From the IMG/VR virus record IMGVR_UViG_3300030685_000017, positions 1-64,000 of that record: DNA of 64,000 nucleotides; one strand, 5' to 3'. How positions within the stretch are numbered: the stretch's first letter is position 1; each line of letters begins with the position of its first letter. This document shows, in pieces, positions 340 through 56,102 of this stretch. Made by a program: the position numbers and the translations under genes. The notes under the pieces were generated by a model. It was not told the origin of the DNA, ran no database searches, and saw only the letters and a list, made by a program, of their open reading frames with translations. This DNA is from a virus.

Positions 340-993
340 TTATAAGATTTCTGCAATATCAGTTACAACCAAGTCAGCTATATGATATGAAACCGCTTCG
401 TCTGCAAACATCCACCAATCTTTTCTATAGTTAGCATCATATTCTTTTTCTGTAATTGTAGAATTACTTAATATATATTCTTTCACATGTATTTCTGTTA
501 TTTTTAAAAATTCTGCCGTATCAATCATTTTTCCAGTAGTTCCACCAGCGGAAGTGTATCCATCATGAATTAATACCGTACAATCTTTTAATAAGTATCT
601 TTTTTGTCCTGCTAATAGTAACAAACAACCACTAGAATTACATTTACTTAATCCAATTGTATATACTGGAGTTTTTGAAATTTTAATAATATCACAAATA
701 GCCATTACAGCTTCTAAACTTCCACCATCTGAATTAATATATATTTTAATAGGAATTCTATCTTCAATAGGAATATTTGAACTTTCATCTTCTTTATTCC
801 ATTTAATAATATTATGATAATAATCTACAAAATCATCATTTATTAAACCATTTAGATAAATTTTACGTTCTTTAAGTCTTTCATAATATTCAACTAATTG
901 AGGATCTGGTAATCGTAAATTAGATAATTCTTCCATTCCTTCTGGAATTTCTACCGTTAAAAAATCTTTATTAATGCATTTTCCTTTTTTCAT
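340..993 (-). CDS. clpP: ClpP-like serine protease
   Basis: This 217-residue protein has the ClpP fold signature: IPIKIYINSDGGSLEAVMAI (strand and turn before the active site), then SKCNSSGCLLLLAG, where the serine of SSG occupies the catalytic position, then VLIHDG, whose His corresponds to ClpP MIHQP, and a C-terminal WMFADEAVSYHIADLVV resembling the ClpP FMSAEEA..YGLID end. Length fits ClpP (about 200 residues). Phage ClpP-like proteins can be head maturation proteases, but this phage has a separate prohead protease beside the capsid genes, so this copy may form or modify a Clp peptidase in the cytoplasm. A GGAAGAG site precedes the ATG. The tmRNA at 46.6 kb makes a role in degrading tagged peptides conceivable; that link is inference. 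Confidence 0.85.
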   Translation of the reverse strand: MKKGKCINKDFLTVEIPEGMEELSNLRLPDPQLVEYYERLKERKIYLNGLINDDFVDYYHNIIKWNKEDESSNIPIEDRIPIKIYINSDGGSLEAVMAICDIIKISKTPVYTIGLSKCNSSGCLLLLAGQKRYLLKDCTVLIHDGYTSAGGTTGKMIDTAEFLKITEIHVKEYILSNSTITEKEYDANYRKDWWMFADEAVSYHIADLVVTDIAEIL

Positions 994-44262: not shown

Positions 44263-44335
44263 GGCTCTGTGGTCAAACGGATTAAGACGTTTACCTCTCC
44301 GGTAAAAATTGGGGGTTCGAGTCCTCCCAGAGTCA
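44263..44335 (+). tRNA. tRNA-Glu (CTC), atypical base 37
   Basis: Full cloverleaf: acceptor GGCTCTG/CAGAGTC, anticodon stem TTTAC/GTAAA with loop CTCTCCG, T arm GGGGG TTCGAGT CCTCC, discriminator A. The D arm and acceptor resemble tRNA-Glu. Anticodon CTC reads GAG; C at position 37 is unusual. Confidence 0.75.
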
Positions 44336-44358
44336 TTTAATCTTAGAAAGGATAATAA

Positions 44359-44664
44359 ATGGATACATTAAAATTTTCTTGGAATAAATTTTGTGATAAT
44401 TCTCATATGTGTGTCTGTTGTGTTACTGAATAAGAAGCACAGAAATTTTGTAAATTAATGGATAAACACGAATTAGAATAGGCTAACGGTGATAGTTACT
44501 TAAATCGTACAAGTTATTTATATCATCCAGAAAATATATGTTATTTTGAAGATGGAACAATGTCTAGTGCTATTTATGCCATTGACCATAATTCAGAATT
44601 CTATTATTATTCACAAATTTTTAAAGCTTCTGTTAATTTTCAAACTTTTAAAGAAAGGATATAA
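44359..44664 (+). pseudogene. A-module gene interrupted by TAA and TAG
   Basis: ATG 44359 (MDTLKFSWNKFCDNSHMCVC) follows AGAAAGGA. In-frame TAA at 44431 and TAG at 44479 interrupt the module; otherwise it reads ..CVTE*EAQKFCKLMDKHELE*ANGD.. and ends NFQTFKERI. The same TAA lies at the same place in the copy at 54679-54999, where the second position is TGG. Without readthrough only 24 residues are made. Confidence 0.65.
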
Positions 44665-44704
44665 ATTGAATATATAATTTTCGGCTGATTAGTCAAGTGG
44701 ATAA
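44665..44704 (+). repeat. 40-bp repeat upstream of and into tRNA, copy 1
   Basis: The block ATTGAATATATAATTTTCGG followed by the first 20 or so bases of the tRNA also occurs at 52029-52068. It joins a gene end to a tRNA in both places. Confidence 0.7.
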
Positions 44705-44754
44705 AACATCACCTTCTCAGGGTGAAAACATGGGTTCAAATCCTATATCAGTCA
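44683..44754 (+). tRNA. tRNA-Glu (CTC)
   Basis: Acceptor GGCTGAT/ATCAGTC, anticodon stem TCACC/GGTGA with loop TTCTCAG, giving anticodon CTC with A37. T arm ATGGG TTCAAAT CCTAT. Discriminator A. The D stem GTC/AAC is imperfect. Confidence 0.75.
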
Positions 44755-44774
44755 TAAAAAAGATTGGAGGAAAA

Positions 44775-44909
44775 ATGATTAAAATTAAATTTCTTTGGAA
44801 AAAGTTTAAAATTATCTTTTTTGGGATAAGATTTAGAAATAATCCAAATGTATGTATTTACTGTAAAACAGAATCAGAAGCAATTCAGTTTTGTAAAATG
44901 ATGGATTAA
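44775..44909 (+). CDS. Truncated A-module protein
   Basis: ATG 44775 after GGAGG starts MIKIKFLWKKFKIIFFGIRF then VCIYCKTESEAIQFCKMMD: only the first half of the module (44 residues), ending where others continue with HG..W. It directly follows tRNA-Glu. Possibly a decay product of a duplication. Confidence 0.55.
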   Translation: MIKIKFLWKKFKIIFFGIRFRNNPNVCIYCKTESEAIQFCKMMD

Positions 44910-44919
44910 TGGAGATATC

Positions 44920-45051
44920 ATGTTATATGTGGGAGAAGTAATTTTCTCAAAAGAACTTGGGGAGAAAAATCCTGTCTATATTTTATTAGATGTTGTCACA
45001 AATAAATTAGTTTGTTGCACTAAAAAAGCATTTGTTCCAGTTATTGATTAG
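44920..45051 (+). CDS. Small GEV-module protein
   Basis: MLYVGEVIFSKELGEKNPVY and ILLDVVTNKLVCCTKKAFV, 43 residues. The same module is residues about 125-170 of the 676-residue protein (MSIYGEVTFPDELGEDPVFI LLD..ICC) and has a variant at 52574-52744. Its TAG stop lies within the tRNA-like element at 45046-45094. GGAGAT precedes the ATG. Confidence 0.55.
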   Translation: MLYVGEVIFSKELGEKNPVYILLDVVTNKLVCCTKKAFVPVID

Positions 45052-45094
45052 TCTGAAGGCTCAGAATTTATAGGTTCAATCCCTATACTAATCA
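45046..45094 (+). other. Mini tRNA-like element (49 bases)
   Basis: Acceptor-like stem GATTAGT/ACTAATC, a T arm ATAGG TTCAATC CCTAT, and between them only a small CTGA/TCAG hairpin instead of D and anticodon arms. It could be a degraded tRNA or an RNA element. It shares GATTAGTC with the tRNA-Glu genes. Confidence 0.5.
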
Positions 45095-45118
45095 TTTGCG
45101 CAATAGTGCGCGATTTAA

Positions 45119-45132
45119 GCTACTATAGTAGC
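45119..45132. repeat. 14-bp palindrome GCTACTATAGTAGC
   Basis: Perfect inverted repeat between the tRNA-like element and the next small gene; a possible operator or RNA hairpin. Confidence 0.55.
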
Positions 45133-45147
45133 AAGAAAGGAGTTATT

Positions 45148-45231
45148 ATGACTAAACCGTATTTTGAAGAAGAAGAGGAAGAAGAACATCCGGTAGATCC
45201 ACGTACTTTGGATCACGAATCAACAAAGTAG
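45148..45231 (+). CDS. 27-residue acidic peptide
   Basis: AAAGGAG precedes ATG; the peptide is MTKPYFEEEEEEEHPVDPRT LDHESTK, with seven consecutive Glu. Highly acidic microprotein; a DNA-mimic role is conceivable but unsupported. Confidence 0.5.
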   Translation: MTKPYFEEEEEEEHPVDPRTLDHESTK

Positions 45232-45241
45232 TAAAAATGAG

Positions 45242-45269
45242 GGGGAATAATATTTTAAATTTATTCCCC
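45242..45269. terminator. Hairpin after the acidic peptide
   Basis: GGGGAATAA and TTATTCCCC form a 9-bp stem with a 10-base loop. It lacks a clear U-run, so terminator function is uncertain. Confidence 0.45.
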
Positions 45270-45276
45270 TATATTA

Positions 45277-45305
45277 TTGACTTTTACTAAATTTTATGGT
45301 AATCA
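45277..45305 (+). promoter_or_regulatory. Possible promoter of the large RNA candidate
   Basis: TTGACT, a 17-base spacer ending in TGG, and TAATCA. The -35 and extended -10 are good, the -10 is weak. Confidence 0.45.
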
Positions 45306-45808
45306 GAAAGTAATGCTATAACAACGATTGAAATTAATTATTAAATAATAATTTCACTGTATAATGAAATTTTACAAATTACGCCTATTCTATGTTTTCG
45401 CTTAGTGGTTCATAGAATTAAAACTTAAATAAAATTAAGCATTGAAGAGACTTTTTAATCTCACACTATGGTAAGTGTATAATAGATCAAAATATAATAC
45501 AAATGTTTACTGATTATTTATCATAATTCCACATATGTGGTGATAAGTAATCAGTAGAACAAAGGACTGTAAAGTTTAAAATTTAAAACTCTTAAATCAA
45601 AGTTTAAAAGCTAAAAGATCTTTTATAGCCGTTTCAGGCTTTTAAAGTTTAAACAAAAACGTTCACAGTTAAAAGTTTGATAAAATCTTTCTATTTAAAA
45701 AAGGTTTGGGGTTAGGCGCAAATACCCCGTAAGTACCGCAAAGCTATTATATAGTGATAATATTTATTTTATAATACTAATCCTCATGTTTAAAACATGA
45801 GGATTTTT
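45306..45808 (+). ncRNA. Candidate large structured RNA
   Basis: About 500 bases with no reading frame of note, flanked by a possible promoter and a strong terminator and lying between tRNA genes. Visible structure: hairpin TTCTATG/CATAGAA (45388-45417); a 14-bp hairpin 45510-45554 whose inner CCACATATGTGG is itself palindromic; GGGG/CCCC closing a TTAGGCGCAAATA loop near 45708-45728, whose TAGGCG can pair with CGCCTA at 45382-45387 as a pseudoknot. Size and location fit the large phage RNAs ROOL and GOLLD; the identity is not proven. Confidence 0.6.
45782..45808 (+). terminator. Terminator directly before tRNA-Glu
   Basis: CCTCATGTTT and AAACATGAGG form a 10-bp stem around a single A, followed by ATTTTT. 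The tRNA starts two bases later. Confidence 0.85.
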
Positions 45809-45809
45809 A

Positions 45810-45881
45810 GGCTCTGTAGTCAAGTGGATAAGACGTTGCATTCTCAGTGCAAAAACGGAAGTTCAAATCTTCCCAGAGTCA
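45810..45881 (+). tRNA. tRNA-Glu (CTC)
   Basis: Acceptor GGCTCTG/CAGAGTC, anticodon stem TTGCA/TGCAA with loop TTCTCAG (CTC), T arm GGAAG TTCAAAT CTTCC. Discriminator A. Cleanest of the five Glu-like genes. Confidence 0.85.
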
Positions 45882-45920
45882 TAAACATAAATAGATTTAT
45901 ATTTGAAAGGAATAATTATA

Positions 45921-46256
45921 ATGACAGATAATATTTCTTTTTGGGAACATTTCTTGAATTACAAAGAATTATCTATATGTACCATTGGTTTTAAACAGGC
46001 TGTTCATTGTAAAACAAAAAGAGAAGCAAAACTATTTTGTAAAATGTTGCATGAGCATGGTAGAAAGTGGTGTGATGGTTCTTCATATTTGTCTACAACA
46101 GAATTTTATTATTATGGAGATAATTCATATTATACTAATGATGGTCATGTTTTTGGTGGAATTTATGTGGAGCAAAAATATATTCCTATTTATGAATTTC
46201 ATGATATTTTTCCTATTAATATTGATTTTCAAACGATAAAACAAAGAGGAGTATAA
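45921..46256 (+). CDS. A-module protein with F-x-T tail
   Basis: ATG 45921 (MTDNISFWEHFLNYKELSIC) follows AAAGGA. The 111-residue product has the full module: FKQAVHCKTKREAKLFCKML, HEHGRKWCDGSSYL, YYTNDGHVFG and IPIYEFHDIFPIN, ending DFQTIKQRGV. Thr of the tail is encoded by ACG. Follows tRNA-Glu by about 40 bases. Confidence 0.65.
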   Translation: MTDNISFWEHFLNYKELSICTIGFKQAVHCKTKREAKLFCKMLHEHGRKWCDGSSYLSTTEFYYYGDNSYYTNDGHVFGGIYVEQKYIPIYEFHDIFPINIDFQTIKQRGV

Positions 46257-46262
46257 AATGAT

Positions 46263-46628
46263 ATGAAAACTGATATTATAGAATGGTATAAAGTAAAAAT
46301 TCAAAATGAAATTAGACAGCAGAGATTAGACCAGTCAACATATATAGCATTACAAATAAAACATATAGATGCTGATAAGTACAGAGATGAAATAGTCTGT
46401 GGTGGGGGAAATATTGCATTTATTTGTAATGGTATGGGTGATATTTACGCTTTAGTAGGTTTATGTGAATATTATAAAATCCCATTTCCCATTTATGAAG
46501 ATTTTATGTATAAAGAACAGACATATCCAATTTATTATTATCGAATAGATAATAATAAAGATACAGTATTTTCTTATAGTACAGATCCAAGAACAGAAGA
46601 AATCTATGATATAATTCATATAGATTAA
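46263..46628 (+). CDS. Hypothetical protein, 121 residues
   Basis: MKTDIIEWYKVKIQNEIRQQ then SLQIKHIDADKY-like beta/helical sequence with CGGGNIAFICNGMGDIYALV. It has no F-x-T tail. It ends 7 bases before the tmRNA. An ATG two codons upstream is out of frame (ATG ATA TGA), so the listed start is used. Function unknown. Confidence 0.5.
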   Translation: MKTDIIEWYKVKIQNEIRQQRLDQSTYIALQIKHIDADKYRDEIVCGGGNIAFICNGMGDIYALVGLCEYYKIPFPIYEDFMYKEQTYPIYYYRIDNNKDTVFSYSTDPRTEEIYDIIHID

Positions 46629-46635
46629 ATATTAA

Positions 46636-46932
46636 GGGCACGCAAAGGTTTCGACAGGGATTAGAACATTATGATTTCGCTCGGTTGATCTCGTTATAGA
46701 TCAAAAAATAAATATAAACGCAAACAAATTACAAGCTGTAGCTTAATTGCTACTCCAAAAAACTTCCGAGATATTACTGGTAGGTTGTTGAGGATTAGAG
46801 ACAAGTAACAGTTTTCCTATTTATGAAAATGGGATGGTGGATTAGGCAGAATTCGTTTTCTCGCCCCTAAACAGCGTAAAGAATTATAAATAGTATAATC
46901 TTTGGACATGGGTTCGATTCCCATCGTGTCCA
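46636..46932 (+). ncRNA. ssrA: Transfer-messenger RNA (tmRNA)
   Basis: The 297-base sequence starts GGGCACGCAAAGGTTTCGAC and ends GGACATGGGTTCGATTCCCA TCGTGTCCA, the classic tmRNA ends: a 7-bp acceptor stem (GGGCACG/CGTGTCC) and an alanine-type T arm. A tag frame GCA AAC AAA TTA CAA GCT GTA GCT TAA lies at 46720-46746 (A-N-K-L-Q-A-V-A). The stop sits in a GTAGC/GCTAC hairpin, as in helix 5. tmRNA frees stalled ribosomes and adds the tag to the unfinished protein. CCA is not encoded. Confidence 0.95.
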
Positions 46933-46955
46933 GTATAGTTTTACAAGGAGAATAT

Positions 46956-47189
46956 ATGAAATCTTTTAGAATGAAATGTATAGACAACAGAAATAATAAA
47001 ACTGATTATACAATAGGAAAAATATACATTGTTGTTAATGGAATTTTTATGACCGATGGAGAAAATCTAATGCCGACTAACTCATTTGAAGATTGGGAAT
47101 CTTATTCTAGTTCCATATGGGAATTATTACCAGATATTCCAAAAGAATTTTGTACCTTTAAAACTAGAAAGAGGAATATGAACTGTTAA
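46956..47189 (+). CDS. Small protein with F-x-T tail
   Basis: ATG 46956 follows AAGGAG. The 77-residue protein starts MKSFRMKCIDNRNNKTDYTI and has a SIWELLPDIPKEFCTFKTRK end. The layout is like short SH3-like phage proteins whose C-terminus WELL(P) is common; the tail FCTFKTR fits the shared motif with ACC as Thr codon. Confidence 0.6.
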   Translation: MKSFRMKCIDNRNNKTDYTIGKIYIVVNGIFMTDGENLMPTNSFEDWESYSSSIWELLPDIPKEFCTFKTRKRNMNC

Positions 47190-47581
47190 TTTCAAAAACA
47201 GATAAAAATATCTTAGAATACTATGAAGAATATTATAAGAATACATCTTATCGTTTAGCTCATTCTTTTTGTTTTATTTGTAATAGTAAGCATGATGTAA
47301 TTATTTTTATATCATGGTGTTTTAAAAATCATATTAAATTTTATGATAATATACAAGATCGAACAAATAAAGCAAAAGTATTAGATTTCTATATAAGACA
47401 ATATAATTATTGTATTAATATACAACATGAATCCTTAATAATAGCTCCAGATGGTGTACCTTATATTGGATGCGTTGGTAATATTTTTAATGTACATTTT
47501 TATGTAAAAGATTTAGCAAGAACCTTTTCACCGTTTGATACAATGAAAGAAAGAATGGTTTTTATGGGAGAGAGCAAATAA
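47183..47581 (+). CDS. Small protein without a standard start
   Basis: The frame is open from just upstream of 47183 to the TAA at 47579 and encodes IICNSKHDVIIFISWCFKN-like sequence ending FSPFDTMKERMVFMGESK, with a degenerate F-x-T-x-K-E-R. No ATG exists early in the frame; CTG at 47183 after AAAGAGG is the best candidate. A base loss at the ATG 47178 (frame mismatch) could also explain it. Confidence 0.4.
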   Translation: MLISKTDKNILEYYEEYYKNTSYRLAHSFCFICNSKHDVIIFISWCFKNHIKFYDNIQDRTNKAKVLDFYIRQYNYCINIQHESLIIAPDGVPYIGCVGNIFNVHFYVKDLARTFSPFDTMKERMVFMGESK

Positions 47582-47619
47582 CTAACAATAGCATTCCCTT
47601 TTTATTTATCTGATTAAGT

Positions 47620-47640
47620 CGTTTATTGTAGCGATAAACG
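47620..47640 (+). other. Perfect 7-bp hairpin before tRNA-like element
   Basis: CGTTTAT and ATAAACG flank the 7-base loop TGTAGCG, an anticodon-arm-like geometry, immediately upstream of the element at 47649. Confidence 0.5.
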
Positions 47641-47648
47641 GCTGATTC

Positions 47649-47700
47649 GTGGCTAAGTAAAAGAAATTGGTACTTATCAGTTCAAATCTGAATAGCCACA
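47649..47700 (+). other. Mini tRNA-like element (52 bases)
   Basis: Acceptor GTGGCTA/TAGCCAC with discriminator A, T arm TCAG TTCAAAT CTGA, and between them a single AAGTA/TACTT hairpin with an 11-base loop instead of D and anticodon arms. A degraded tRNA or a functional small RNA. Confidence 0.5.
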
Positions 47701-47718
47701 TATAGAGAGGAAAATAAT

Positions 47719-48018
47719 ATGTTTAAAATAGGCTGTATGGTAAAAATAAAATCATGGGAAAAATTAACTAAAGAAAATACAATTAATGAAGATGGTGATA
47801 TTTTATTATACAATTCAAATGATTATTTCTTTAAAGAAGATAGACAATTATGTGGACAAGTATGTGTTATAGAAAAAAATATAAGCAGATTATGGAAAGG
47901 ATACATAAAAATTAAAGTATTAAAAACAGGAGTAATAAAAATAAGACCTTGGCAGATACTTGAACATTATACTATTAATCCTTTATTTAAAACTTTTAAG
48001 GAAAGAAGAAATGAATAA
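47719..48018 (+). CDS. B-module (SH3-like) protein with F-x-T tail
   Basis: A 99-residue protein: MFKIGCMVKIKSWEKLTKEN, then YFFKEDRQLCGQVCVIEKNI, RIRPWQILEHYTINPLFKTF KERRNE-like ending. The GxxVxIKSW and LCG positions recur in the other B-module proteins. AAGGAAAG overlapping its end serves the next gene. AGAGAGGAA precedes the ATG. Confidence 0.65.
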   Translation: MFKIGCMVKIKSWEKLTKENTINEDGDILLYNSNDYFFKEDRQLCGQVCVIEKNISRLWKGYIKIKVLKTGVIKIRPWQILEHYTINPLFKTFKERRNE

Positions 48019-48220
48019 TAACTTAATTTGTTTTATAATTGATGATGGAAAAAATTTTATAGCAGTTATTAAAAATCTGCATAAAAATACATCTTTATAT
48101 TTTTCAAATGATACAATAAATTTTGGTCAATTTACAATTATTATTAATGATTTAGGAAAAGAAAATATATTTATGGTTTCAGATTTTACTTTTCCTGAAA
48201 TATGTAATTGGTGTTTATAG
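48011..48220 (+). CDS. Small protein, 69 residues
   Basis: ATG 48011 (MNNNLICFIIDDGKNFIAVI) overlaps the previous stop and is preceded by AAGGAAAGAAG, part of the upstream tail sequence. Beta-rich, with a short C-terminal FTFPEICNWCL. Ends with TAG. Function unknown. Confidence 0.5.
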   Translation: MNNNLICFIIDDGKNFIAVIKNLHKNTSLYFSNDTINFGQFTIIINDLGKENIFMVSDFTFPEICNWCL

Positions 48221-48236
48221 CCAGAGAGGAAATATT

Positions 48237-48563
48237 ATGAAACAAATAGAAAAACTGGAACTTATAATAAAGAATTTTACCAAACGTTTTTTAAAAAAGA
48301 GAAGGAGAAAATTTATGGATTTCTTAAATGAGTTAGCCAAAAATATGTCAGAAGAGAACAAAAATAAAATTGCTACCGAACTCGAATTAGGAGGGTGGCA
48401 TTTGGGAGATACTTTTCCTAATAATAAGGAAGTAACAACAGTTCTTTTCTTTATTGAGAATAAAATCCCAATTTTATGTAGAGCCATCTACGATGAAGAA
48501 GTATCCGGTTGGAAAGATGTTCGAAATGATTCTATAGTAAGTAATGTATTGGCTTGGAAATAA
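48237..48563 (+). CDS. Hypothetical protein, 108 residues
   Basis: MKQIEKLELIIKNFTKRFLK has a basic helix, KKRRRKF, then MDFLNELAKNMSEENKNKIA and a beta-rich LFFIENKIPILCRAIYDEEV. The internal ATG (48315) with GAGAAGGAG could be the real start, giving about 82 residues. Function unknown. Confidence 0.5.
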   Translation: MKQIEKLELIIKNFTKRFLKKRRRKFMDFLNELAKNMSEENKNKIATELELGGWHLGDTFPNNKEVTTVLFFIENKIPILCRAIYDEEVSGWKDVRNDSIVSNVLAWK

Positions 48564-48577
48564 GGAAGGATAAATAG

Positions 48578-49072
48578 ATGAACAATAAGAGAAAAATAGG
48601 AAGTACTATAATTTTGGTGTTTGTGTTTGTTTTCTTAGTAATAGTAGACTATAAGTCTATACATAATACTCCAAAACATCAATTGTCGGTACAGCAGAAT
48701 AAACTAATTGAAGTGAAACAGCAGGTAAAAACATATAGTAATCAGGTAGATCAATATCACACTACTATTGATGCATTAACTGTATCGGAAAATGATTTAC
48801 AGGATAAAGTAAATCAGTTAAAGGCTGAAAGCGGTCAGGCTCAATATTTGGTGACATTTGGTATCAAACAGTCTCATGTATTCTGGCAGGTAAAGGATAA
48901 TATCAAAGATTCTATACAGGCATTAGATCTACAGGTTGCTGTTAGTAAAGAATACTATGACAGTGTTCAGATAGGTCAAACGATTAATGATGATTTTCGT
49001 ATGGCATCTTTTGTATTCGACGGTTCTATCGGTAACTGGGATATTACTGTAAAAAACAAAGAAATAAAATAA
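48578..49072 (+). CDS. Membrane-anchored coiled-coil protein
   Basis: A 164-residue protein: TM helix at residues 7-23 (IGSTIILVFVFVFLVIVDY), a coiled coil (QQNKLIEVKQQVKTYSNQVD, VNQLKAESGQ), then a beta domain LVTFGIKQSHVFWQVKDNIK to FDGSIGNWDITVKNKEIK. This last domain (..KxSH....xxx..DxxxFRxxSxxxxGSxGxWxI) is widespread in Firmicutes phage proteins. AAGGAAGGA precedes the ATG. Function unknown. Confidence 0.65.
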   Translation: MNNKRKIGSTIILVFVFVFLVIVDYKSIHNTPKHQLSVQQNKLIEVKQQVKTYSNQVDQYHTTIDALTVSENDLQDKVNQLKAESGQAQYLVTFGIKQSHVFWQVKDNIKDSIQALDLQVAVSKEYYDSVQIGQTINDDFRMASFVFDGSIGNWDITVKNKEIK

Positions 49073-49080
49073 AGAAATGT

Positions 49081-49159
49081 GTGTCCTTAACTCAATCGGG
49101 AGAGTAGTCGGTTTTATATAGACAAACAGGCTATTTGGGTTCGAATCCCAAAGGATACA
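49081..49159 (+). tRNA. Unusual tRNA, possible UAA-reading anticodon
   Basis: Good ends: acceptor GTGTCCT/AGGATAC, D stem ACTC/GAGT, T arm TTGGG TTCGAAT CCCAA, discriminator A. Between them is 28 bases, so the anticodon arm plus variable region is longer than normal. The best stem is GTCGG/TAGAC (three Watson-Crick pairs, one wobble, one mismatch), giving a TTTTATA loop and anticodon TTA, which would read UAA. An 11-base variable region follows. Either a suppressor-like tRNA or a decayed gene. Confidence 0.5.
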
Positions 49160-49340
49160 TTGAAATTTGATAAAATGTTGGCTTAGAGGTAGCCATCATC
49201 TAAGGAGTGGGACGAAATTAAAAGTGTGAGATAATATACATGTCTAATTGAACTACTTTTAATGGATAGTAAAAAGTCACCCCGTAAATGGTAAGGATTG
49301 ATTTCCCTTTGGTGTAAAAACACATTATCAAATTTCTCAT
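49160..49340. other. Non-coding stretch between tRNA genes
   Basis: No convincing gene. A perfect 9-bp inverted repeat ATTAAAAGT/ACTTTTAAT lies at 49217-49263. No tRNA could be assembled from it. Confidence 0.5.
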
Positions 49341-49413
49341 TGGGCTATCGCCAAGCGGTAAGGCACAGGACTTTGACTCCTGCATTTCACCAGTTCGAAT
49401 CTGGTTAGCCCAG
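49341..49413 (+). tRNA. tRNA-Gln (TTG)
   Basis: Acceptor TGGGCTA/TAGCCCA, anticodon stem CAGGA/TCCTG with loop CTTTGAC (anticodon TTG), T arm ACCAG TTCGAAT CTGGT, discriminator G. Canonical tRNA-Gln features. Confidence 0.95.
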
Positions 49414-49442
49414 TTCATAAAGAATATATTTAAGGAGGTATT

Positions 49443-49574
49443 ATGAAAAAATCCAATGATAATAATATAATTGATAAATATACTTTATTTTTAATATTAA
49501 CTCCGTTGGTAGGAGTATTTTTAGTAATATTAATGATGCTATTTTTTGTACTTATACTAAAGTATATTATTTAA
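49443..49574 (+). CDS. 43-residue membrane protein
   Basis: AAGGAGG precedes ATG. MKKSNDNNIIDKYTLFLILT and a long hydrophobic segment ending VLILKYII form one membrane helix. Between two tRNA-Gln genes. Function unknown. Confidence 0.6.
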   Translation: MKKSNDNNIIDKYTLFLILTPLVGVFLVILMMLFFVLILKYII

Positions 49575-49589
49575 TAAGTGATAAAATTA

Positions 49590-49663
49590 GGGACTATAGC
49601 CAAGAGGTTAAGGCACAAGACTCTGTTTCTTGCAGTTCGTTGGTTCGAATCCAACTAGTCCCA
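49590..49663 (+). tRNA. tRNA-Gln (CTG)
   Basis: Acceptor GGGACTA/TAGTCCC, anticodon stem CAAGA/TCTTG with loop CTCTGTT (anticodon CTG), T arm TTGG-TTCGAAT-CCAA, discriminator A. Base 37 is U, which is unusual. Confidence 0.8.
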
Positions 49664-49690
49664 TTAGTAAGAAAAGAAAGGAGTATTGAA

Positions 49691-49969
49691 ATGGAATTTT
49701 CATGGGAATATTTTTGTAATGATAATGAAATGGTAGCGGTTCATTGTCCTACTCCAGAAAATGCAAGAAAGTTTTGCAGATTAATGTCTGAACATAATTT
49801 AGTATGGCAGACCGGACGTAATTATTTGGGTAAAAATTTGTGGTATGATCACAAAGAAAAAACTTGTTATACTAATCAAGGTTCTTATTTATCTCTTGAA
49901 GATGCTTATAGTAATTATAATATTTATGAATTTTCAGAAGTAATGCAGGTAGAAGAAAATGACATATAA
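49691..49969 (+). CDS. A-module protein without tail
   Basis: ATG 49691 (MEFSWEYFCNDNEMVAVHCP) follows AAAGGAG; the 92-residue product has TPENARKFCRLMSEHNLVWQ and IYEFSEVMQVEEND. It ends with END instead of the F-x-T tail and overlaps the next gene. Confidence 0.65.
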   Translation: MEFSWEYFCNDNEMVAVHCPTPENARKFCRLMSEHNLVWQTGRNYLGKNLWYDHKEKTCYTNQGSYLSLEDAYSNYNIYEFSEVMQVEENDI

Positions 49970-50276
49970 ATTTAAGGTTGGAGATAAAGTTATTTTTAAA
50001 ACATGGAATGAGATGGAAAAAGAATAAGGAATTAATGAAGATGGAAATATTTGTGTACCATGTACATTTATGCGTGAGATGGAACGATCATCATATGGAA
50101 GAATTTTTATTATAACAAGTCAAGAAATAGATAATTATACTTTTAATGGGGAATCATGTCAATTTATAGAATTAACTCCAAATACAGGCTATTCTATTAG
50201 TGCTCAAATGTTAAAACCTGTTATTCCTTTTATTCCCTTTATGACTTTTAAAAATAAAATGAGGTATTCAAAATGA
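49959..50276 (+). pseudogene. B-module gene with in-frame TAA at a Tyr position
   Basis: ATG 49959 (MTYKFKVGDKVIFKTWNEME) overlaps the upstream stop. TAA at 50025-50027 stands where relatives have the Tyr of E-Y-G. The rest is intact: GINEDGNICVPCTFMREMER ... PFIPFMTFKNKMRYSK. Readthrough would give a normal 105-residue protein; otherwise 22 residues. Confidence 0.65.
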
Positions 50277-50560
50277 TTTATACTTTTAAAGTTGGAGATA
50301 GAGTTAAGTTTAAATCTAACGAACAAATGTATGGGGTTAAGTGCCCTTCTGGATTTACTAAAGAAATGGGAGATACATTAGGCGGTAAAGAATCTATAAT
50401 TCTACGTATACATCAGGAAAGAGGATATCAATATATTGATATTTCGATGGGTAAAAAACCATATGTAGCATGGAATTTTGATAATTCTATGTTTATTCCT
50501 GTTCCACATCATTTATCTTTTATGACTTTAAAAGAAAAAAGAACAATTTCAAAAAGATAA
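50273..50560 (+). CDS. B-module protein with F-x-T tail
   Basis: MIYTFKVGDRVKFKSNEQMY, GFTKEMGDTLGGKESIILRI and a tail LSFMTLKEKRTISKR, 95 residues. Starts on an ATGA overlap. Relatives have SW where this has SN. Confidence 0.65.
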   Translation: MIYTFKVGDRVKFKSNEQMYGVKCPSGFTKEMGDTLGGKESIILRIHQERGYQYIDISMGKKPYVAWNFDNSMFIPVPHHLSFMTLKEKRTISKR

Positions 50561-50619
50561 TTATACATTTTATGCATTATTAATGCATAAATATACATAA
50601 TAAAAGTGGGGATATTAAA

Positions 50620-50985
50620 ATGGAATTCTCATGGAAAGATTTTATAAATAGTTATAAAGAAAATTATAACAGAAATTTTATTGCTTTAAGACAAAATAAG
50701 ATGGAGTGGGAATTTAATGGTGATAAAGAAAATCTGCAACAATTACATAAGATTTTTATAGCAAAAAGAACGTTTTTAATTCATACAGCAAAATTATATG
50801 GATTAAAATTAGAGAAAGATGTATGGGATTCATCTTCTATTGAAGAATATAACACTGCTTTTGTTTTATATAATGATGGTTTATAGAAGAGACTATGATA
50901 TTGTAGAAATATATGGCTTTTCTACTAATCCAGATAAAGCTATGGATATCTCTATTTCTGGACGGATTTGTTTATTTAATCGGTA
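50620..50985 (+). pseudogene. A-module relative with +1 frame change
   Basis: ATG 50620 (MEFSWKDFINSYKENYNRNF) after GGGGAT; 88 residues to a TAG at 50884. The +1 frame continues RRDYDIVEIYGFSTNPDKAM to a stop at 50985, matching the Y-x-IYEFS end of the module. The full protein would be about 121 residues. Confidence 0.5.
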
Positions 50986-51001
50986 AGGGAGAAAAATTAG
51001 A

Positions 51002-51274
51002 ATGGGTAAAATAAATCGTTATAATTATGAACAAATTGTTGATAAATCTTTAAAATATACTGAAAAATATTTTGATAAACTTAAAGGTAAAACAATTACT
51101 CCTGAAACAAGAGTTATTGTTATTTCAGAAAATGTCAAGATATTTATTAGACATTTATATATTACTGGATTAGAAATTGTTGTAAATCACAAAGTAAAAT
51201 CTATTGCATTACCAGATCAAAAAAGAAAAATTTGCTTTACAGATCATGAAAATAAATGTTATGATATTTTATAA
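51002..51274 (+). CDS. Hypothetical protein, 90 residues
   Basis: MGKINRYNYEQIVDKSLKYT then VRVISENVKIFIRHLYITGL-type strands ending CYDIL. Basic start, beta-rich; no tail. GGGAG precedes. Function unknown. Confidence 0.5.
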   Translation: MGKINRYNYEQIVDKSLKYTEKYFDKLKGKTITPETRVIVISENVKIFIRHLYITGLEIVVNHKVKSIALPDQKRKICFTDHENKCYDIL

Positions 51275-51285
51275 GAGGGAATAGT

Positions 51286-51600
51286 ATGAACAAATGGCTT
51301 AAAGAATATGATAAAGGAAAATATTATAAGCATATGGGTATTATTTGTTGTAATGCAGTTCAAGTTACACAAGTATATCAACATAATATACGTTTACGTC
51401 CATTTTTTCATTCTTATGATTTAGAAAAAATGTTAGAGATACTTTCACGTTATGGTATTATAATTATTACAAATCTCAATACCTATTGTGCTACAATATT
51501 AAGTGCAGAACGTACTTATGATATAGTTAAAAAGTATGAAGATGTATTTGAAAAACGTTCTTCTGAATTTCAGACGTTTAGGGAGAAACTGCATGAATAA
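51286..51600 (+). CDS. Paralog pair member 1 with F-x-T tail
   Basis: MNKWLKEYDKGKYYKHMGII, CCNAVQVTQVYQHNIRLRPF and LEILSRYGIIIITNLNTYCA, 104 residues, ending SSEFQTFREKLHE (Thr = ACG). The HMGIICC start is a diverged version of the VHCKT strand. Followed by its own paralog. Confidence 0.6.
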   Translation: MNKWLKEYDKGKYYKHMGIICCNAVQVTQVYQHNIRLRPFFHSYDLEKMLEILSRYGIIIITNLNTYCATILSAERTYDIVKKYEDVFEKRSSEFQTFREKLHE

Positions 51601-51922
51601 ATTATTAAAAATATATACTGATTGCCCAAAAGATCATATGGGCATATGTTGTGTCACGGAAGATCAAATGTTTCGAGTTATGGAGTATAATAGAAATCAT
51701 CATTTGGATTGTCAATCTAATTGTCAATCTACTTCTAATAGATCTTTAAAACAAATATTACATGAGTATAACATGATTATAATAACAAATAGAAATACTT
51801 TTTGCGTTACAATGGCACATGCATCTTTTTGTTATGATACAATATTTACATTTAAAGATGTGTTTACAAGAACAGTTAAACCAGATTTTTTAACTTTAAG
51901 AGAAAAGATAGAATTAAAGTAA
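51593..51922 (+). CDS. Paralog pair member 2 with F-x-T tail
   Basis: ATG 51593 overlaps the upstream stop. MNKLLKIYTDCPKDHMGICC, SLKQILHEYNMIIITNRNTF and a tail PDFLTLREKIELK, 109 residues. About a third of positions match its upstream neighbour, clear evidence of tandem duplication. Confidence 0.6.
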   Translation: MNKLLKIYTDCPKDHMGICCVTEDQMFRVMEYNRNHHLDCQSNCQSTSNRSLKQILHEYNMIIITNRNTFCVTMAHASFCYDTIFTFKDVFTRTVKPDFLTLREKIELK

Positions 51923-51932
51923 GAATAAATCT

Positions 51933-52050
51933 TTGATTTCATATTGTGATTATGTGATTTATGAATTTTCTGATATTAATAAAATTAATTCTGATTTTTT
52001 TAACCATGAAGAAAAGAAAAGAACTTTAATTGAATATATAATTTTCGGCT
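51933..52050 (+). pseudogene. Remnant of an A-module gene
   Basis: The frame CDYVIYEFSDINKINSDFFN HEEKKRTL keeps only the last part of the module. There is no start. The block downstream is the 40-bp repeat leading to tRNA-Glu, so the remnant marks a past recombination joint. Confidence 0.5.
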
Positions 52051-52068
52051 GATTAGTCAAGTGGATAA
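52029..52068 (+). repeat. 40-bp repeat upstream of and into tRNA, copy 2
   Basis: Second copy of the block at 44665-44704, leading into the tRNA at 52047. Confidence 0.7.
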
Positions 52069-52118
52069 GACGCTTATCTCTCCGATAAGAAACATGGGTT
52101 CAAATCCTATATCAGTCA
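52047..52118 (+). tRNA. tRNA-Glu (CTC), atypical base 37
   Basis: Acceptor GGCTGAT/ATCAGTC, anticodon stem CTTAT/ATAAG with loop CTCTCCG (CTC, C37), T arm ATGGG TTCAAAT CCTAT. Discriminator A. Nearly identical to 53935-54006. Confidence 0.7.
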
Positions 52119-52142
52119 TTTGAATAGAAAAGGAGAAGTAAT

Positions 52143-52574
52143 ATGTCATTATTATCAATAATATTGGAGATTTTTTTATATAATATAATAATAATTAGTA
52201 TTTTTTGTTCTTTGAATATTAAAATAAAAGATTATTATAAAGCAAAAACTGATCTTTTTGCATATCTGAATAATGATAATGCTATTTATATGGTTTATAA
52301 ACGTGGATTAATGATACATGGTAAGCATTATAAATATTTAATTGGAGATAAATTTAGATTTGGTAATAATTATGCTATAATAACTGGTTATGATCATTCA
52401 GAATTAGAACTATATGGAGATCTTTATTATATAGTAGAACAATGTAATTCAATGGGGATATCTATTTCTAGTGAATTCTGTATATCAGAAAGAACATTAT
52501 CTCAAGCACAATGGATAAATAAACCAAATAAAAAAGAAGAATTTAAAACCTTTAAGGAGAAAATACGAACATAA
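52143..52574 (+). CDS. Membrane-anchored protein with F-x-T tail
   Basis: An N-terminal membrane helix (LLSIILEIFLYNIIIISIFC) precedes a beta domain with YKYLIGDKFRFGNNYAIITG, like a B-module, and a C-terminal EEFKTFKEKIRT (Thr = ACC). 143 residues. The tail is present even though the protein is membrane-bound, which is notable. AAAGGAG precedes. Confidence 0.65.
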   Translation: MSLLSIILEIFLYNIIIISIFCSLNIKIKDYYKAKTDLFAYLNNDNAIYMVYKRGLMIHGKHYKYLIGDKFRFGNNYAIITGYDHSELELYGDLYYIVEQCNSMGISISSEFCISERTLSQAQWINKPNKKEEFKTFKEKIRT

Positions 52575-52744
52575 TGTTCTGGGTAGGAGAAGTATTAATT
52601 AATAAATTAAATAATAAAAGAGCAAAAGTTATAGAAGCTATTTATAAACGTAATGAAAAACCACTTATTACGGTAGAAATGATAGATGAAAACAAAATAG
52701 TTTATATTACAATTTTTCCAGAAGAATGGAAGGATGGGGAATAA
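52574..52744 (+). CDS. GEV-module small protein
   Basis: MFWVGEVLINKLNNKRAKVI and ITIFPEEWKDGE, 56 residues, starting on an overlap with the previous stop. Its GEV start resembles the 44920 gene and part of the 676-residue protein. Confidence 0.5.
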   Translation: MFWVGEVLINKLNNKRAKVIEAIYKRNEKPLITVEMIDENKIVYITIFPEEWKDGE

Positions 52745-52745
52745 T

Positions 52746-52925
52746 ATGAAAGAAAAAGAATTACAGGAATTAAAGAAGAAAGCAGAAAATTGTGTATTAA
52801 ATTCAGTAATATGCTCTAAATCTGAATTATGTGAAGCATGTCCTAACAATGTTTCGGCATCAGAAGTGTTACGTTTATGTTTGGATTATGAATTTTTAAG
52901 ACATAATTATAATTTATTTGGTTAA
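52746..52925 (+). CDS. Small protein with Cys motif
   Basis: ATG 52746 (MKEKELQELKKKAENCVLNS) follows GATGGGG. 59 residues with CSKSELCEACPNN (CxxxxxxCxxC). The terminal YEFLRHNYNLF is helical. Function unknown. Confidence 0.55.
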   Translation: MKEKELQELKKKAENCVLNSVICSKSELCEACPNNVSASEVLRLCLDYEFLRHNYNLFG

Positions 52926-52947
52926 AAATCTGCGAAAGCAGTTTTTT
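52924..52947 (+). terminator. Intrinsic terminator with GAAA loop
   Basis: CTGC/GCAG stem extended by A/T pairs, GAAA tetraloop, then six T. Confidence 0.75.
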
Positions 52948-52993
52948 ATATAGTAATTGTAGACGGGATTTCTTGATGAAAAGGAGGTTTGCT

Positions 52994-53038
52994 ATGAAGG
53001 GTATTAGAGCACCTAGCATTTTTAGAAAAGTTTTATAA
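52994..53038 (+). CDS. Possible 14-residue basic peptide
   Basis: A perfect AAGGAGG, then ATG; the peptide is MKGIRAPSIFRKVL, net charge strongly positive. It lies between a terminator and a strong promoter and may be a microprotein or a false frame. Confidence 0.35.
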   Translation: MKGIRAPSIFRKVL

Positions 53039-53044
53039 AAAGTA

Positions 53045-53073
53045 TTGACAAAGTAACCGAAACGTGGTAAAAT
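53045..53073 (+). promoter_or_regulatory. Consensus sigma-A promoter with extended -10
   Basis: TTGACA, a 17-base spacer ending in TGG, and TAAAAT. Drives the two-repeat protein at 53127. Confidence 0.9.
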
Positions 53074-53126
53074 GAACTTACAAAAACAAAGAGCAAAAAG
53101 CTCGCCTAAAAATGGAGGAAATAATT

Positions 53127-53888
53127 ATGTCTAAATCAAAAGAAGTTGGATTCGTAAAAGTTGCACTGGTAAAAATTCTGAAAGCTGATGGAAGTGATTT
53201 TGTTACATCTAAGTTTGCAATTGCTTCTTCAATCGCTGATACTGTATTTGCAGGTTCTCTTGTAACCGTAACTGGTGAGTACAGTGATACTCCGGTACGT
53301 GTCGCAGAAGTTATTACTGCCGATGAGTGTGCAAGAAGATACAAGAATTCCGTGTACAATCATGTTGTATCTCTGCTTAATCCTGATTATGTGGATGACG
53401 ACGAGATTATCGGTCTTACCGCAGAGGATGCTAACACATTTGTACCGGCAAAAGACAAGAAAATCGCTCTTATCTGCGTTATGAAAGCTGATGGTATCAA
53501 GTGGACAAACTACAAACTTGCTATTCCGGCAAGAATGCCTGTAAAAGCAGGAGACATTGTTACAAATGATCTCTTTGACGGTTCTTATCTCAGAGTTCGT
53601 GAGGTAATTACAGCTGACGAGTGCGCTCGTAGATACGAGAAACCGGTAACACATGCAGTACATTCTGTTGTTGTTGATGTACCGGCTGGAGAGAAAGTAT
53701 ATGGTTTGACTCCGAGTGAGAGACCTGAGGATATTGAAGCGGCTACTAAGGCAAGAGATGCGAGAGCATATACTAAAGTTGATCGCAGAACACCAATCTC
53801 TATCGACTTTTCTTCTGTTGGAGAGACAAGTAGAGAAGACGCAATTGTTGCTATCGTTCTTGCGGCAATTGATGCTCTCAAAGATTGA
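53127..53888 (+). CDS. Two-repeat protein under its own strong promoter
   Basis: ATG 53127 (MSKSKEVGFVKVALVKILKA) after GGAGG. The 253-residue product has two copies of a unit ending RVAEVITADECARRYKN and RVREVITADECARRYEK, each preceded by a KADG..... strand region, then a third, shorter basic/acidic part. Codons are GC-rich compared with all neighbours. With a consensus promoter and terminator it is probably a separate, highly expressed gene. I do not recognise the family. Confidence 0.7.
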   Translation: MSKSKEVGFVKVALVKILKADGSDFVTSKFAIASSIADTVFAGSLVTVTGEYSDTPVRVAEVITADECARRYKNSVYNHVVSLLNPDYVDDDEIIGLTAEDANTFVPAKDKKIALICVMKADGIKWTNYKLAIPARMPVKAGDIVTNDLFDGSYLRVREVITADECARRYEKPVTHAVHSVVVDVPAGEKVYGLTPSERPEDIEAATKARDARAYTKVDRRTPISIDFSSVGETSREDAIVAIVLAAIDALKD

Positions 53889-53902
53889 TAATTAATTAAA
53901 TT

Positions 53903-53933
53903 AAAGCGTCTACAGTAATGTAGGCGCTTTTTT
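53903..53933 (+). terminator. Terminator directly before tRNA-Glu
   Basis: AAGCGTCTAC/GTAGGCGCTT stem with a 6-base loop and six T. The tRNA starts two bases later. Confidence 0.9.
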
Positions 53934-53934
53934 C

Positions 53935-54006
53935 GGCTGATTAGTCAAGTGGATAAGACGCTTATCTCTCCGATAAGAAACATGGGTTCAAATCCTATAC
54001 CAGTCA
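53935..54006 (+). tRNA. tRNA-Glu (CTC), atypical base 37
   Basis: As 52047-52118 but the acceptor end ACCAGTC leaves one A-C mismatch with GGCTGAT. Anticodon loop CTCTCCG (CTC). Confidence 0.7.
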
Positions 54007-54026: not shown

Positions 54027-54338
54027 ATGTCTGAACAATTTAAAATTGGAGAACGAGTATGAATAAAATCTTGGAAAGAATTAATTAAAGAGTTTCCGTT
54101 AAGAGATTCGACTACTGTATCAATTTATAATAACGTGACAGAATCACATTTATATACGTTTTATACTAAAAATTTTATTGATTTATACAAATATGGGAGA
54201 ATAATTACAATTCAAGATTCATGGAAGGATAGAACTAATGTAATTATTAAAACTGAAATTGAAACAATAATTATTGATATGAAATTAATAACTAAAATAA
54301 ATCCTATATTTATAACATTAAAGGAAAGAAGAAAATAA
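54027..54338 (+). pseudogene. B-module gene with in-frame TGA
   Basis: ATG 54027 (MSEQFKIGERV) and TGA at 54060-54062, then IKSWKELIKEFPLRDSTTVS to INPIFITLKERRK. The stop is at the variable residue of GxxVxIKSW. If translated through, the product is a normal B-module with the shared tail (Thr = ACA). Confidence 0.6.
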
Positions 54339-54339
54339 A

Positions 54340-54675
54340 ATGAAAATTATCTTAGAAAAACAATTTTGGGAAGAATTTTTAAATCAAAATAATGATATTG
54401 TTGTTTGTTGTCATACAAAAATAGAAGCAGAAACATTCTGTAAATTAATGCACGAACATGGATTAAAATGGAAAAGTGGTAACAGTTATTTAGATATTAA
54501 TAGGTGGAATAATCTATGTATTGATAAAAAATATAGTGTTAATTATACTAATCACGGATGTTACGGTACTTGTCTGGATTTTGAAAAGAGACATGACTAT
54601 ATGATTTATGAATTTTCTGATATTATATTTAAAAAAAATATTTCTTTTTTAACATTAGCTCAAAGGAGTTTATAA
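54340..54675 (+). CDS. A-module protein with F-x-T tail
   Basis: 111 residues: MKIILEKQFWEEFLNQNNDI, VVCCHTKIEAETFCKLMHEH, GLKWKSGNSYLDINRW, YTNHGCYG and YMIYEFSDII, ending SFLTLAQRSL. AAGGAAAGAAG from the upstream tail precedes it. Confidence 0.65.
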   Translation: MKIILEKQFWEEFLNQNNDIVVCCHTKIEAETFCKLMHEHGLKWKSGNSYLDINRWNNLCIDKKYSVNYTNHGCYGTCLDFEKRHDYMIYEFSDIIFKKNISFLTLAQRSL

Positions 54676-54678
54676 ATT

Positions 54679-54999
54679 ATGATTAATTTAGAAATCTTTT
54701 GGAAACAATTTTGTGATCGTCATAATCATATAGCTGTTAATTGTGTTACTGAATAAGAAGCACAGAAATTTTGTAAATTAATGGATAAACACGAATTAGA
54801 ATGGGCTAACGGTTGTTGTTATAATACAGAAAATACAGGATGGAATTGTTATAATAAATCTATGTGTTATAGTAACAGCGGAACATACTGTAACCTAGAT
54901 GGCTATCGAGTACGTCATTATACTATTTATAAATTTTCTGATATATTTATTACAGATAATTCTAAATTTATGACTGTAAAGCAGAGGAATACAAAATGA
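54679..54999 (+). pseudogene. A-module gene interrupted by TAA
   Basis: ATG 54679 (MINLEIFWKQFCDRHNHIAV) after AAAGGAG; TAA at 54754-54756 in NCVTE*EAQKFCKLMDKHELE. The rest (WANGCCYNTENTGWNC ... KFMTVKQRNTK) is intact. The interrupted segment closely matches the copy at 44359-44664. Confidence 0.65.
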
Positions 55000-55322
55000 T
55001 AAGTCAAGAGGAATTTTGGAAAAAATTTTGTGAACAAAGATTTCATATGACCGTTCATTGTAAAACAGAACAACAAGCACAACAATTTTGTCAAATGATG
55101 AAAGAGCATGGATTAACATGGAGATCAGGGAATGAACACTTAAAAAATAACACTTATTGGGAAGATTATAAAGAAGATACATGTTATTCTAATGATGGTG
55201 GCTATGGATTTATGGAGTTTTATACAAATTGTGATTATGTGATTTATGAATTTTCTAAGATATTTATTACAAAAAACACTATGTTTATGACTTTTAAGCA
55301 AAAATCATATAAATGCGGATGA
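54996..55322 (+). CDS. A-module protein with F-x-T tail
   Basis: 108 residues: MISQEEFWKKFCEQRFHMTV, HCKTEQQAQQFCQMMKEHGL, TWRSGNEHL, CYSNDGGYGFMEFY, YVIYEFSKI and a tail MFMTFKQKSYKCG. Best preserved member of the family. Starts on an ATGA overlap. Confidence 0.7.
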   Translation: MISQEEFWKKFCEQRFHMTVHCKTEQQAQQFCQMMKEHGLTWRSGNEHLKNNTYWEDYKEDTCYSNDGGYGFMEFYTNCDYVIYEFSKIFITKNTMFMTFKQKSYKCG

Positions 55323-55689: not shown

Positions 55690-55789
55690 AAAATTCTAAA
55701 TTATAATATAGTTATTGTTCCTGTTATTCTTATAAAATCTAATAATAATGATAATGTGTTTTTTCAAACTTTTAAAGAGAGGATATAGA
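55690..55789 (+). pseudogene. Remnant of a B-module gene end
   Basis: In one frame, IVIVPVILIKSNNNDNVFFQ TFKERI to a TAG at 55787. It matches the end of the intact gene at 56098 (IPVSLIEPCNNLNFQTFKER), but the start is gone. Shows recombination within the family. Confidence 0.55.
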
Positions 55790-56098
55790 ATGCACACTTT
55801 TACAGCAGGTCAGAAAATAAAAATAAAAAGTTTAAAAAAATTAATAAGACAGTATGGTACAGTACAAAGTATAACTGTCCTTGGTATGAAAACATTTCTA
55901 AATTTACCGGAACGTTCTATGACTTTAGATTATATATCTTGGGTATATGGGTATGAAAAACATTATACAATCATACGTAAAGTGGAATGCGCATATTATG
56001 AAGTAAAAGAACTTTCTAGTGTACATCTAATTCCCGTATCGTTAATAGAACCATGTAATAATTTAAACTTTCAGACTTTTAAAGAAAGGACTGGATAG
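55790..56098 (+). CDS. B-module protein with F-x-T tail
   Basis: ATG 55790 (MHTFTAGQKIKIKSLKKLIR) follows GAGAGGATATAG; 102 residues, ending NLNFQTFKERTG. The leading frame from 55748 lacks a ribosome site. Confidence 0.65.
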   Translation: MHTFTAGQKIKIKSLKKLIRQYGTVQSITVLGMKTFLNLPERSMTLDYISWVYGYEKHYTIIRKVECAYYEVKELSSVHLIPVSLIEPCNNLNFQTFKERTG

Positions 56099-56102
56099 AA
56101 TT

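What the first reader, a model, noticed from the sequence alone, without database searches (positions are those of the whole stretch)
46636..46932. Phage-encoded tmRNA with short tag ANKLQAVA
The ends, T arm, tag start GCA AAC and hairpin-held stop are all those of tmRNA. The tag is 8 residues, ending AVA rather than the common LAA. A phage tmRNA could rescue ribosomes stalled on degraded or truncated mRNA and direct the products to a chosen protease.
Basis: partly seen in the sequence, partly recalled or inferred. Interest (0 to 1): 0.78.

Follow-up and report, generated by a model that had tools for sequence, protein, structure and literature searches.

The report
Phage-borne ribosome-rescue RNA (tmRNA)
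A virus of bacteria carries its own complete copy of tmRNA, the bacterial RNA that frees stuck ribosomes and tags their unfinished proteins for destruction; this is a good new example of something phages are already known to do, with an unusually short tag whose ending recurs in related phages.

Summary
Positions 46636-46932 (+) hold a full one-piece tmRNA (Rfam RF00023, 91.8 bits, threshold 47), with tag ANKLQAVA. It lies in a 124.6-kb virus record with portal, terminase and tail genes. Seven phage tmRNAs of the same subtype keep the proposed helices through 26 pairs changed on both sides (4-10 in slid controls). All seven keep the alanine identity pair G3·U70 and the frame-setting A four bases before the tag.

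It is not novel in kind: one survey counted tmRNA in 402 of 18,146 phage genomes. The short AVA-ending tag is not unique either. ANRRMLAVA and ANRQMLAVA occur in two members of the subtype. ANTQLAVA occurs in Lactococcus phages (949 group; 20 records carry this tmRNA, none annotated as tmRNA), where the tag is conserved through silent changes.

The phage has no SmpB, so it must use the host's SmpB, alanyl-tRNA synthetase and CCA-adding enzyme. The most likely role is rescuing ribosomes stalled on cut mRNA during infection. 'A chosen protease' is unproven; the phage does encode a ClpP-like peptidase (340-993, minus strand), but it does not track with tmRNA across relatives.

In passing: 22 small proteins share a C-terminal F-x-T-F-K-E-R motif (0.3 expected).

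The parts
46636..46932 (+). one-piece tmRNA (ssrA) gene, mature part without CCA
   Evidence: ARAGORN; Rfam RF00023 91.8 bits; covariation
46636..46642 (+). acceptor stem 5' strand GGGCACG; G3 of G3-U70
   Evidence: 7/7 pairs with 46925-46931; G3-U70 in 7/7 phage tmRNAs of the subtype
46655..46677 (+). 5' strands of the long connecting helix (CAGGGAUUA and UUAUGAUUU)
   Evidence: two 9-bp stems with 46881-46889 and 46896-46904; 11 of 18 pairs with changes on both sides
46685..46704 (+). PK1-position hairpin UUGAUCU/AGAUCAA; second pseudoknot stem not recognised
46715..46719 (+). UAAAC upstream of the resume codon; A at -4 matches the frame-setting A86 of E. coli
   Evidence: role of A86 from PMC2481249
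46720..46746 (+). tag reading frame GCA AAC AAA TTA CAA GCT GTA GCT TAA = ANKLQAVA-stop
46738..46753 (+). hairpin GUAGC/GCUAC holding the tag stop codon in its loop
   Evidence: 5-bp stem, 89% of cells paired in 7 phages
46774..46808 (+). PK2-region stem UUACU/AGUAA
   Evidence: 68% of cells paired; alignment poor here; absent in the shorter L053 form
46908..46924 (+). T arm AUGGG-UUCGAUU-CCCAU
   Evidence: compensatory changes
46925..46932 (+). acceptor 3' strand CGUGUCC plus discriminator A; no encoded CCA
46263..46628 (+). upstream ORF (121 aa, unknown family), ending 7 nt before the tmRNA
340..993 (-). ClpP-like serine peptidase (217 aa), triad S121/H143/D192; possible partner only
   Evidence: PF00574 89.6 bits; best scores to ClpP models, below their cut-offs; alignment to solved ClpP

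Best explanation
This is a working-type, one-piece tmRNA encoded by a tailed phage of a probable Bacillota host. Its transcript is trimmed by host tRNA enzymes, given CCA by the host CCA-adding enzyme and charged with alanine by host AlaRS at the G3-U70 pair (inferred). With host SmpB it enters ribosomes stalled at the 3' ends of cut or decaying mRNA, which are likely to be common during infection. It accepts the unfinished chain, switches translation to GCA at 46720, adds A plus ANKLQAVA, and stops at the UAA in the hairpin loop. This recycles ribosomes for the phage and marks the product with a hydrophobic C-terminal degron, most simply for host ClpXP. Shown here: sequence, structure, and conservation of structure and of a related tag. 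Inferred: expression, charging, tagging and degradation.
For: RF00023 at 91.8 bits over the full model. Seven related phage tmRNAs: 91% of 387 cells paired, 26 pairs and 54 cells with changes on both sides, covariation 0.443 against 0.08-0.11 in slid controls. G3-U70 in 7/7, and A at -4 in all. In six Lactococcus phages the tag ANTQLAVA is unchanged while third codon positions vary, with 2 variable synonymous sites and no amino-acid change; that suggests selection on the peptide in a second phage group. It sits among phage tRNA genes. Phage tmRNA is common in the literature (PMC9004378).
Against: No RNA or proteomic data. No SmpB in the 124.6-kb record. The surrounding region contains decayed tRNA-ORF cassettes, so decay of the tmRNA too cannot be fully ruled out, though no defect is visible. 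A two-stem PK1 was not recognised. The host and its own tag are unknown.
Confidence: 0.84

Rival explanations
1. A passenger or integration relic: a host ssrA copy captured by the phage, for example at an attachment site in ssrA, with no function of its own.
For: Phages often integrate in ssrA and carry fragments of it (PMC9004378). This record has three tyrosine-integrase matches. The near-complete relatives found through the RNAP-like protein lack tmRNA.
Against: The gene is complete and internal, about 31 kb from the nearest integrase match. Its subtype recurs in other phages with different short tags and compensatory changes. The related ANTQLAVA tag is conserved through silent changes.
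Confidence: 0.08
2. A decoy or inhibitor of host trans-translation, like the tRNA-like-domain-only RNA of mycobacteriophage DS6A, which may titrate SmpB.
For: Precedent reported in PMC4131195 and PMC11915505.
Against: DS6A lacks a tag frame. Here the resume signal, tag, stop hairpin and downstream structure are all present, and the tag is conserved in Lactococcus phages.
Confidence: 0.04
3. A phage-run quality-control branch: the phage tmRNA marks products with a tag suited to a proteolytic complex containing the phage's own ClpP-like peptidase rather than only the host ClpP. (This is an extension of the best explanation, not exclusive of it.)
For: A ClpP-like peptidase with intact Ser-His-Asp triad is encoded at 340-993 (-). 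Another phage with the same tmRNA subtype, L176/G018, also has one. The tag ending AVA recurs in related phages.
Against: No association across relatives: Lactococcus phage LW81 has the tmRNA but no ClpP; G011, PJN02 and MT835469 have ClpP but no tmRNA. No Clp/Hsp100-type unfoldase in the phage. The protein scores similarly to phage head maturation proteases.
Confidence: 0.08

Closest known systems
Bacterial one-piece tmRNA (ssrA, Rfam RF00023)
   Same: tRNA-like domain with G3-U70 and T arm, GCA resume codon with A at -4, tag ending in a hairpin-held stop, long connecting helix
   Different: shorter (297 nt), 8-residue tag ending AVA, CCA not encoded, PK1 reduced to one recognisable stem, fewer downstream structural elements, carried by a phage without smpB
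tmRNA of gut and environmental phages in the same subtype (MT835874/L003, L024, L053, L174, L175, L176)
   Same: shared sequence signatures UUCGCU and AACAGCGUAAAG (one base differs in L003) and the same helices; six of the seven tags are 8-9 residues
   Different: tag sequences differ (ANNRCLAAA, ANNEVRMAA, ANEYQMAA, ANRRMLAVA, ANRQMLAVA; AKIINLFRGSRSVAMAA in L174)
tmRNA of Lactococcus 949-group phages (Audreyjarvisvirus: LW81, AM1, WRP3, phiL47, P1048; also PMBT69)
   Same: 8-residue tag ending AVA (ANTQLAVA); tmRNA among phage tRNA genes; distantly related portal protein
   Different: longer (about 346 nt), different internal sequence, known host; not annotated as a tmRNA in the records examined
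tmRNA of Bacillus phage G and mycobacteriophages Bxz1, Wildcat and others
   Same: complete phage-encoded tmRNA (PMC4131195)
   Different: other hosts and lineages; tag sequences not compared here
Two-piece tmRNA of marine myophages (Melnitz, pelagimyophages)
   Same: phage-encoded tmRNA
   Different: permuted two-piece gene; the permuted examples found here mostly carry ANxxxFALAA-type tags

Membership tests
one-piece tmRNA (RF00023) | covariance-model score above the curated threshold over the full model | tested here: met
   91.8 bits vs 47, model 1-374
one-piece tmRNA (RF00023) | 7-bp acceptor stem with the G3-U70 alanine identity pair and discriminator A | tested here: met
   G3-U70 in 7/7 relatives
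one-piece tmRNA (RF00023) | T arm and D-loop-like segment, no anticodon arm, long connecting helix | tested here: met
   compensatory changes in the T stem and helix
one-piece tmRNA (RF00023) | Ala resume codon with A at -4, in-frame tag, stop codon in a hairpin | tested here: met
   A86 role from PMC2481249
one-piece tmRNA (RF00023) | pseudoknots (typically four) | tested here: inconclusive
   one stem of PK1 and a PK2-region stem found; full pseudoknots not resolved
one-piece tmRNA (RF00023) | partner SmpB available | not testable with these tools
   absent from the phage record; host not identified, host SmpB presumed
one-piece tmRNA (RF00023) | alanine charging, ribosome rescue, tagging | not testable with these tools
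   needs experiments
permuted two-piece tmRNA | circularly permuted gene order with an intervening spacer | tested here: not met
   standard gene order
tRNA-like-domain-only decoy (DS6A type) | no tag reading frame | tested here: not met
   tag frame present
ATP-dependent Clp protease ClpP (for the 340-993 gene) | NCBIfam cut-off and catalytic triad | tested here: inconclusive
   triad S121/H143/D192 present but 83 bits is below the ClpP cut-offs and head maturation families score similarly

The most novel reading that the evidence does not exclude
The phage runs its own tag-and-destroy branch. Its tmRNA writes a phage-type AVA degron that is handled by a proteolytic complex containing the phage ClpP-like peptidase, so that trans-translation products in infected cells are diverted from the host's normal route.
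Probability: 0.08. Interest if true: 0.75.

Novelty: new member of a known kind. Interest (0 to 1): 0.36.

Why it matters
It adds a subtype of phage tmRNA with very short tags, and shows in Lactococcus phages with a culturable host that a phage tag is kept at the peptide level. That makes an open point testable: whether phage tmRNA serves only to free ribosomes or whether its tag also matters. A knock-out of the tmRNA, or a stop codon at the start of the tag, in a Lactococcus phage would separate the two.

Tried and rejected
Exact-tag searches (27-mer coding for ANKLQAVA) found nothing in viral or genome contigs, so the tag is specific to this phage so far. Megablast of structural genes against known phages: no match. 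Host identification by portal protein in genome contigs gave no relatives; the RNAP-like protein is absent from plasmids; the genome search does not accept a taxon name. The host's own tag therefore could not be compared. A first broad pattern scan returned mostly two-piece tmRNAs. A search for near-identical copies of this tmRNA in other contigs found none. An idea that in-frame UAA/UAG codons in small ORFs (44361 on) are read by the UUA-anticodon tRNA at 49080 was left open: the affected ORFs look like decaying paralogs and the tRNA has a mismatch in its anticodon stem. The idea that the C-terminal FxTFKER motif is shared by related phages was tested with one DNA pattern and not supported in seven RNAP-defined relatives.

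Full report
What is there. ARAGORN and Rfam agree on one complete tmRNA at 46636-46932 (+) with tag ANKLQAVA. The Rfam match spans the whole model at 91.8 bits, well above the curated 47. It is the only such gene in the 124,607-base virus record. Folding gives a mild z-score of -2.15, so the case rests on the covariance model and on comparison rather than on folding energy.

Anatomy. The acceptor stem GGGCACG/CGUGUCC is fully paired, with G3-U70, the identity element for alanyl-tRNA synthetase (established knowledge), and discriminator A; CCA is not encoded. The T arm AUGGG-UUCGAUU-CCCAU is canonical. Two 9-bp stems form the long connecting helix. The resume codon GCA at 46720 is preceded by UAAAC, with A at -4, the position shown in E. 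coli (A86) to set the reading frame (PMC2481249). The tag GCA AAC AAA TTA CAA GCT GTA GCT ends at UAA in the loop of GUAGC/GCUAC. The PK1 position has a 7-bp hairpin; a second stem completing a pseudoknot was not recognised.

Relatives and selection. A BLAST match in a human faecal phage contig (MT835874, L003) carries tag ANNRCLAAA. Pattern scans of IMG/VR gave L024 (ANNEVRMAA), L053 (ANEYQMAA, 255 nt), L174 (AKIINLFRGSRSVAMAA), L175 (ANRRMLAVA) and L176 (ANRQMLAVA). The seven align with shared signatures UUCGCU and AACAGCGUAAAG, with few exceptions. For a structure drawn from the window sequence, 91% of cells pair, 26 pairs change on both sides and the covariation score is 0.443. Slid controls give 4-10 such pairs and 0.08-0.11, and no shuffle reaches the observed values. 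Since the structure was derived from one of these sequences, the paired percentage is favoured, but that does not by itself produce double-sided changes. None of the seven encodes CCA.

A second phage group. The portal protein places the phage near SPbeta-like, Sundance-like and Lactococcus 949-like siphophages (26-31% identity), hence a probable Bacillota host. LW81 of the last group has a tmRNA at 109.6 bits, tag ANTQLAVA. Twenty Lactococcus phage records carry it, with no tmRNA feature under the match; two hypothetical proteins are called across it in PMBT69. Across six of them the tag codons vary only at synonymous positions: AAC/AAT and GCC/GCA/GCT. ARAGORN starts four of these tags upstream of GCA (VKTKLNIIANTQLAVA), which the alignment shows is a mis-call of the start. 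The phiL47 paper ran ARAGORN and reported 8 tRNAs; the passages I searched do not report a tmRNA (PMC3888941).

Mechanism. The phage lacks SmpB, as do five tmRNA-bearing viral contigs (some short) and LW81, so it must use the host's. The simplest reading is that the phage adds tmRNA to a host pool strained by cut mRNAs. Whether the tag matters is open; its conservation in Lactococcus phages suggests that it does there. AVA is compatible with ClpXP recognition in principle, since LVA-ended variants of the E. coli tag are used as degrons (PMC9382460), but the tag's own behaviour is untested.

Protease. A 217-aa ClpP-like peptidase is encoded at 340-993 (-), with Ser121, His143 and Asp192 aligned to the ClpP triad. 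It scores below ClpP cut-offs and similarly to head maturation proteases. In Bacillus phage PJN02 two stand-alone homologues lie among nucleotide-metabolism and DNA-ligase genes, which argues against a purely capsid role. Presence across 18 records (this one and the 17) does not track with tmRNA. No Clp/Hsp100-type AAA_2 unfoldase was found.

Literature. Hudson et al. 2014 list ten phages with ssrA (PMC4131195). Al-Shayeb et al. 2020 report tmRNA and SmpB in huge phages (PMC7162821). A 2022 study counted 402 of 18,146 phage genomes with 133 distinct tmRNA forms (PMC9004378). A 2025 database paper gives 10 residues as the commonest tag length and reports tags of only 2 residues (PMC11915505), so an 8-residue tag is not exceptional.

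Verdict. A real, probably functional phage tmRNA: a new member of a known kind, modest interest. The most surprising thing seen in the neighbourhood is a different one. Twenty-two small ORFs from nine sequence groups end in a motif close to F-x-T-[FL]-K-[EQDN]-[RK] plus a few residues, against 0.28 expected from shuffles, and the motif is nearly absent elsewhere in the proteins.

Noticed in passing
window 45903-46256, 47719-48018, 50070-50560, 51286-51922, 52143-52574, 54135-55322, 55748-56441, 61668-61997, 63451-63768; further copies to 74.3 kb in L154: 22 small + strand ORFs in nine sequence groups share a C-terminal motif close to F-x-T-[FL]-K-[EQDN]-[RK] followed by up to 9 residues; 0.28 expected from shuffles, and only 2 internal occurrences in 45,924 aa. 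It often overlaps the next gene's Shine-Dalgarno, but codons vary, so it looks like a protein-level tag of unknown use. One DNA pattern for it was not found in seven relatives.
   Followed up: partly
window 44263-54006: Repeated cassettes of a tRNA gene plus a small ORF: five tRNA-Glu(CTC) copies, two tRNA-Gln, and paralogous ORFs, some broken by in-frame TAA/TAG (for example 44361 on). A tRNA remnant with acceptor and T arm but no anticodon arm lies at about 45043-45095.
   Followed up: partly
window 49080-49160: A tRNA-like gene with anticodon TTA that would read UAA, with an anticodon-stem mismatch (40.4 bits): suppressor tRNA or decaying gene.
   Followed up: partly
window 340-993 (-): ClpP-like peptidase with an intact catalytic triad in a phage that also encodes tmRNA.
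   Followed up: partly
window 21347-24055 (-): 902-aa protein (phrog_8308); a distant relative in Enterocloster phage PMBT24 is annotated as RNA-dependent RNA polymerase, so possibly a phage single-subunit RNA polymerase.
   Followed up: no
G000 coordinates 77905-78351 (+) in L154, 103740-104225 (-) at the L155/L156 border, 123378-123884 (-) in L156: Three tyrosine-recombinase/integrase matches in one phage record.
   Followed up: no
Lactococcus phage records, e.g. NC_049855.1 52287-52633 (L164, L178): tmRNA with tag ANTQLAVA in 949-group Lactococcus phages, not annotated as tmRNA; PMBT69 has two hypothetical proteins called across it.
   Followed up: yes
L040 463-1877: A viral contig with a tmRNA (tag ANVDYSTEYYAVAA) next to a GOLLD giant RNA and a tRNA.
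   Followed up: no
L172 2379-2454 (viral contig IMGVR_UViG_3300021400_002167): A CTA-anticodon tRNA (called tRNA-Pyl) near a very short 255-nt phage tmRNA that lacks the PK2 region.
   Followed up: no
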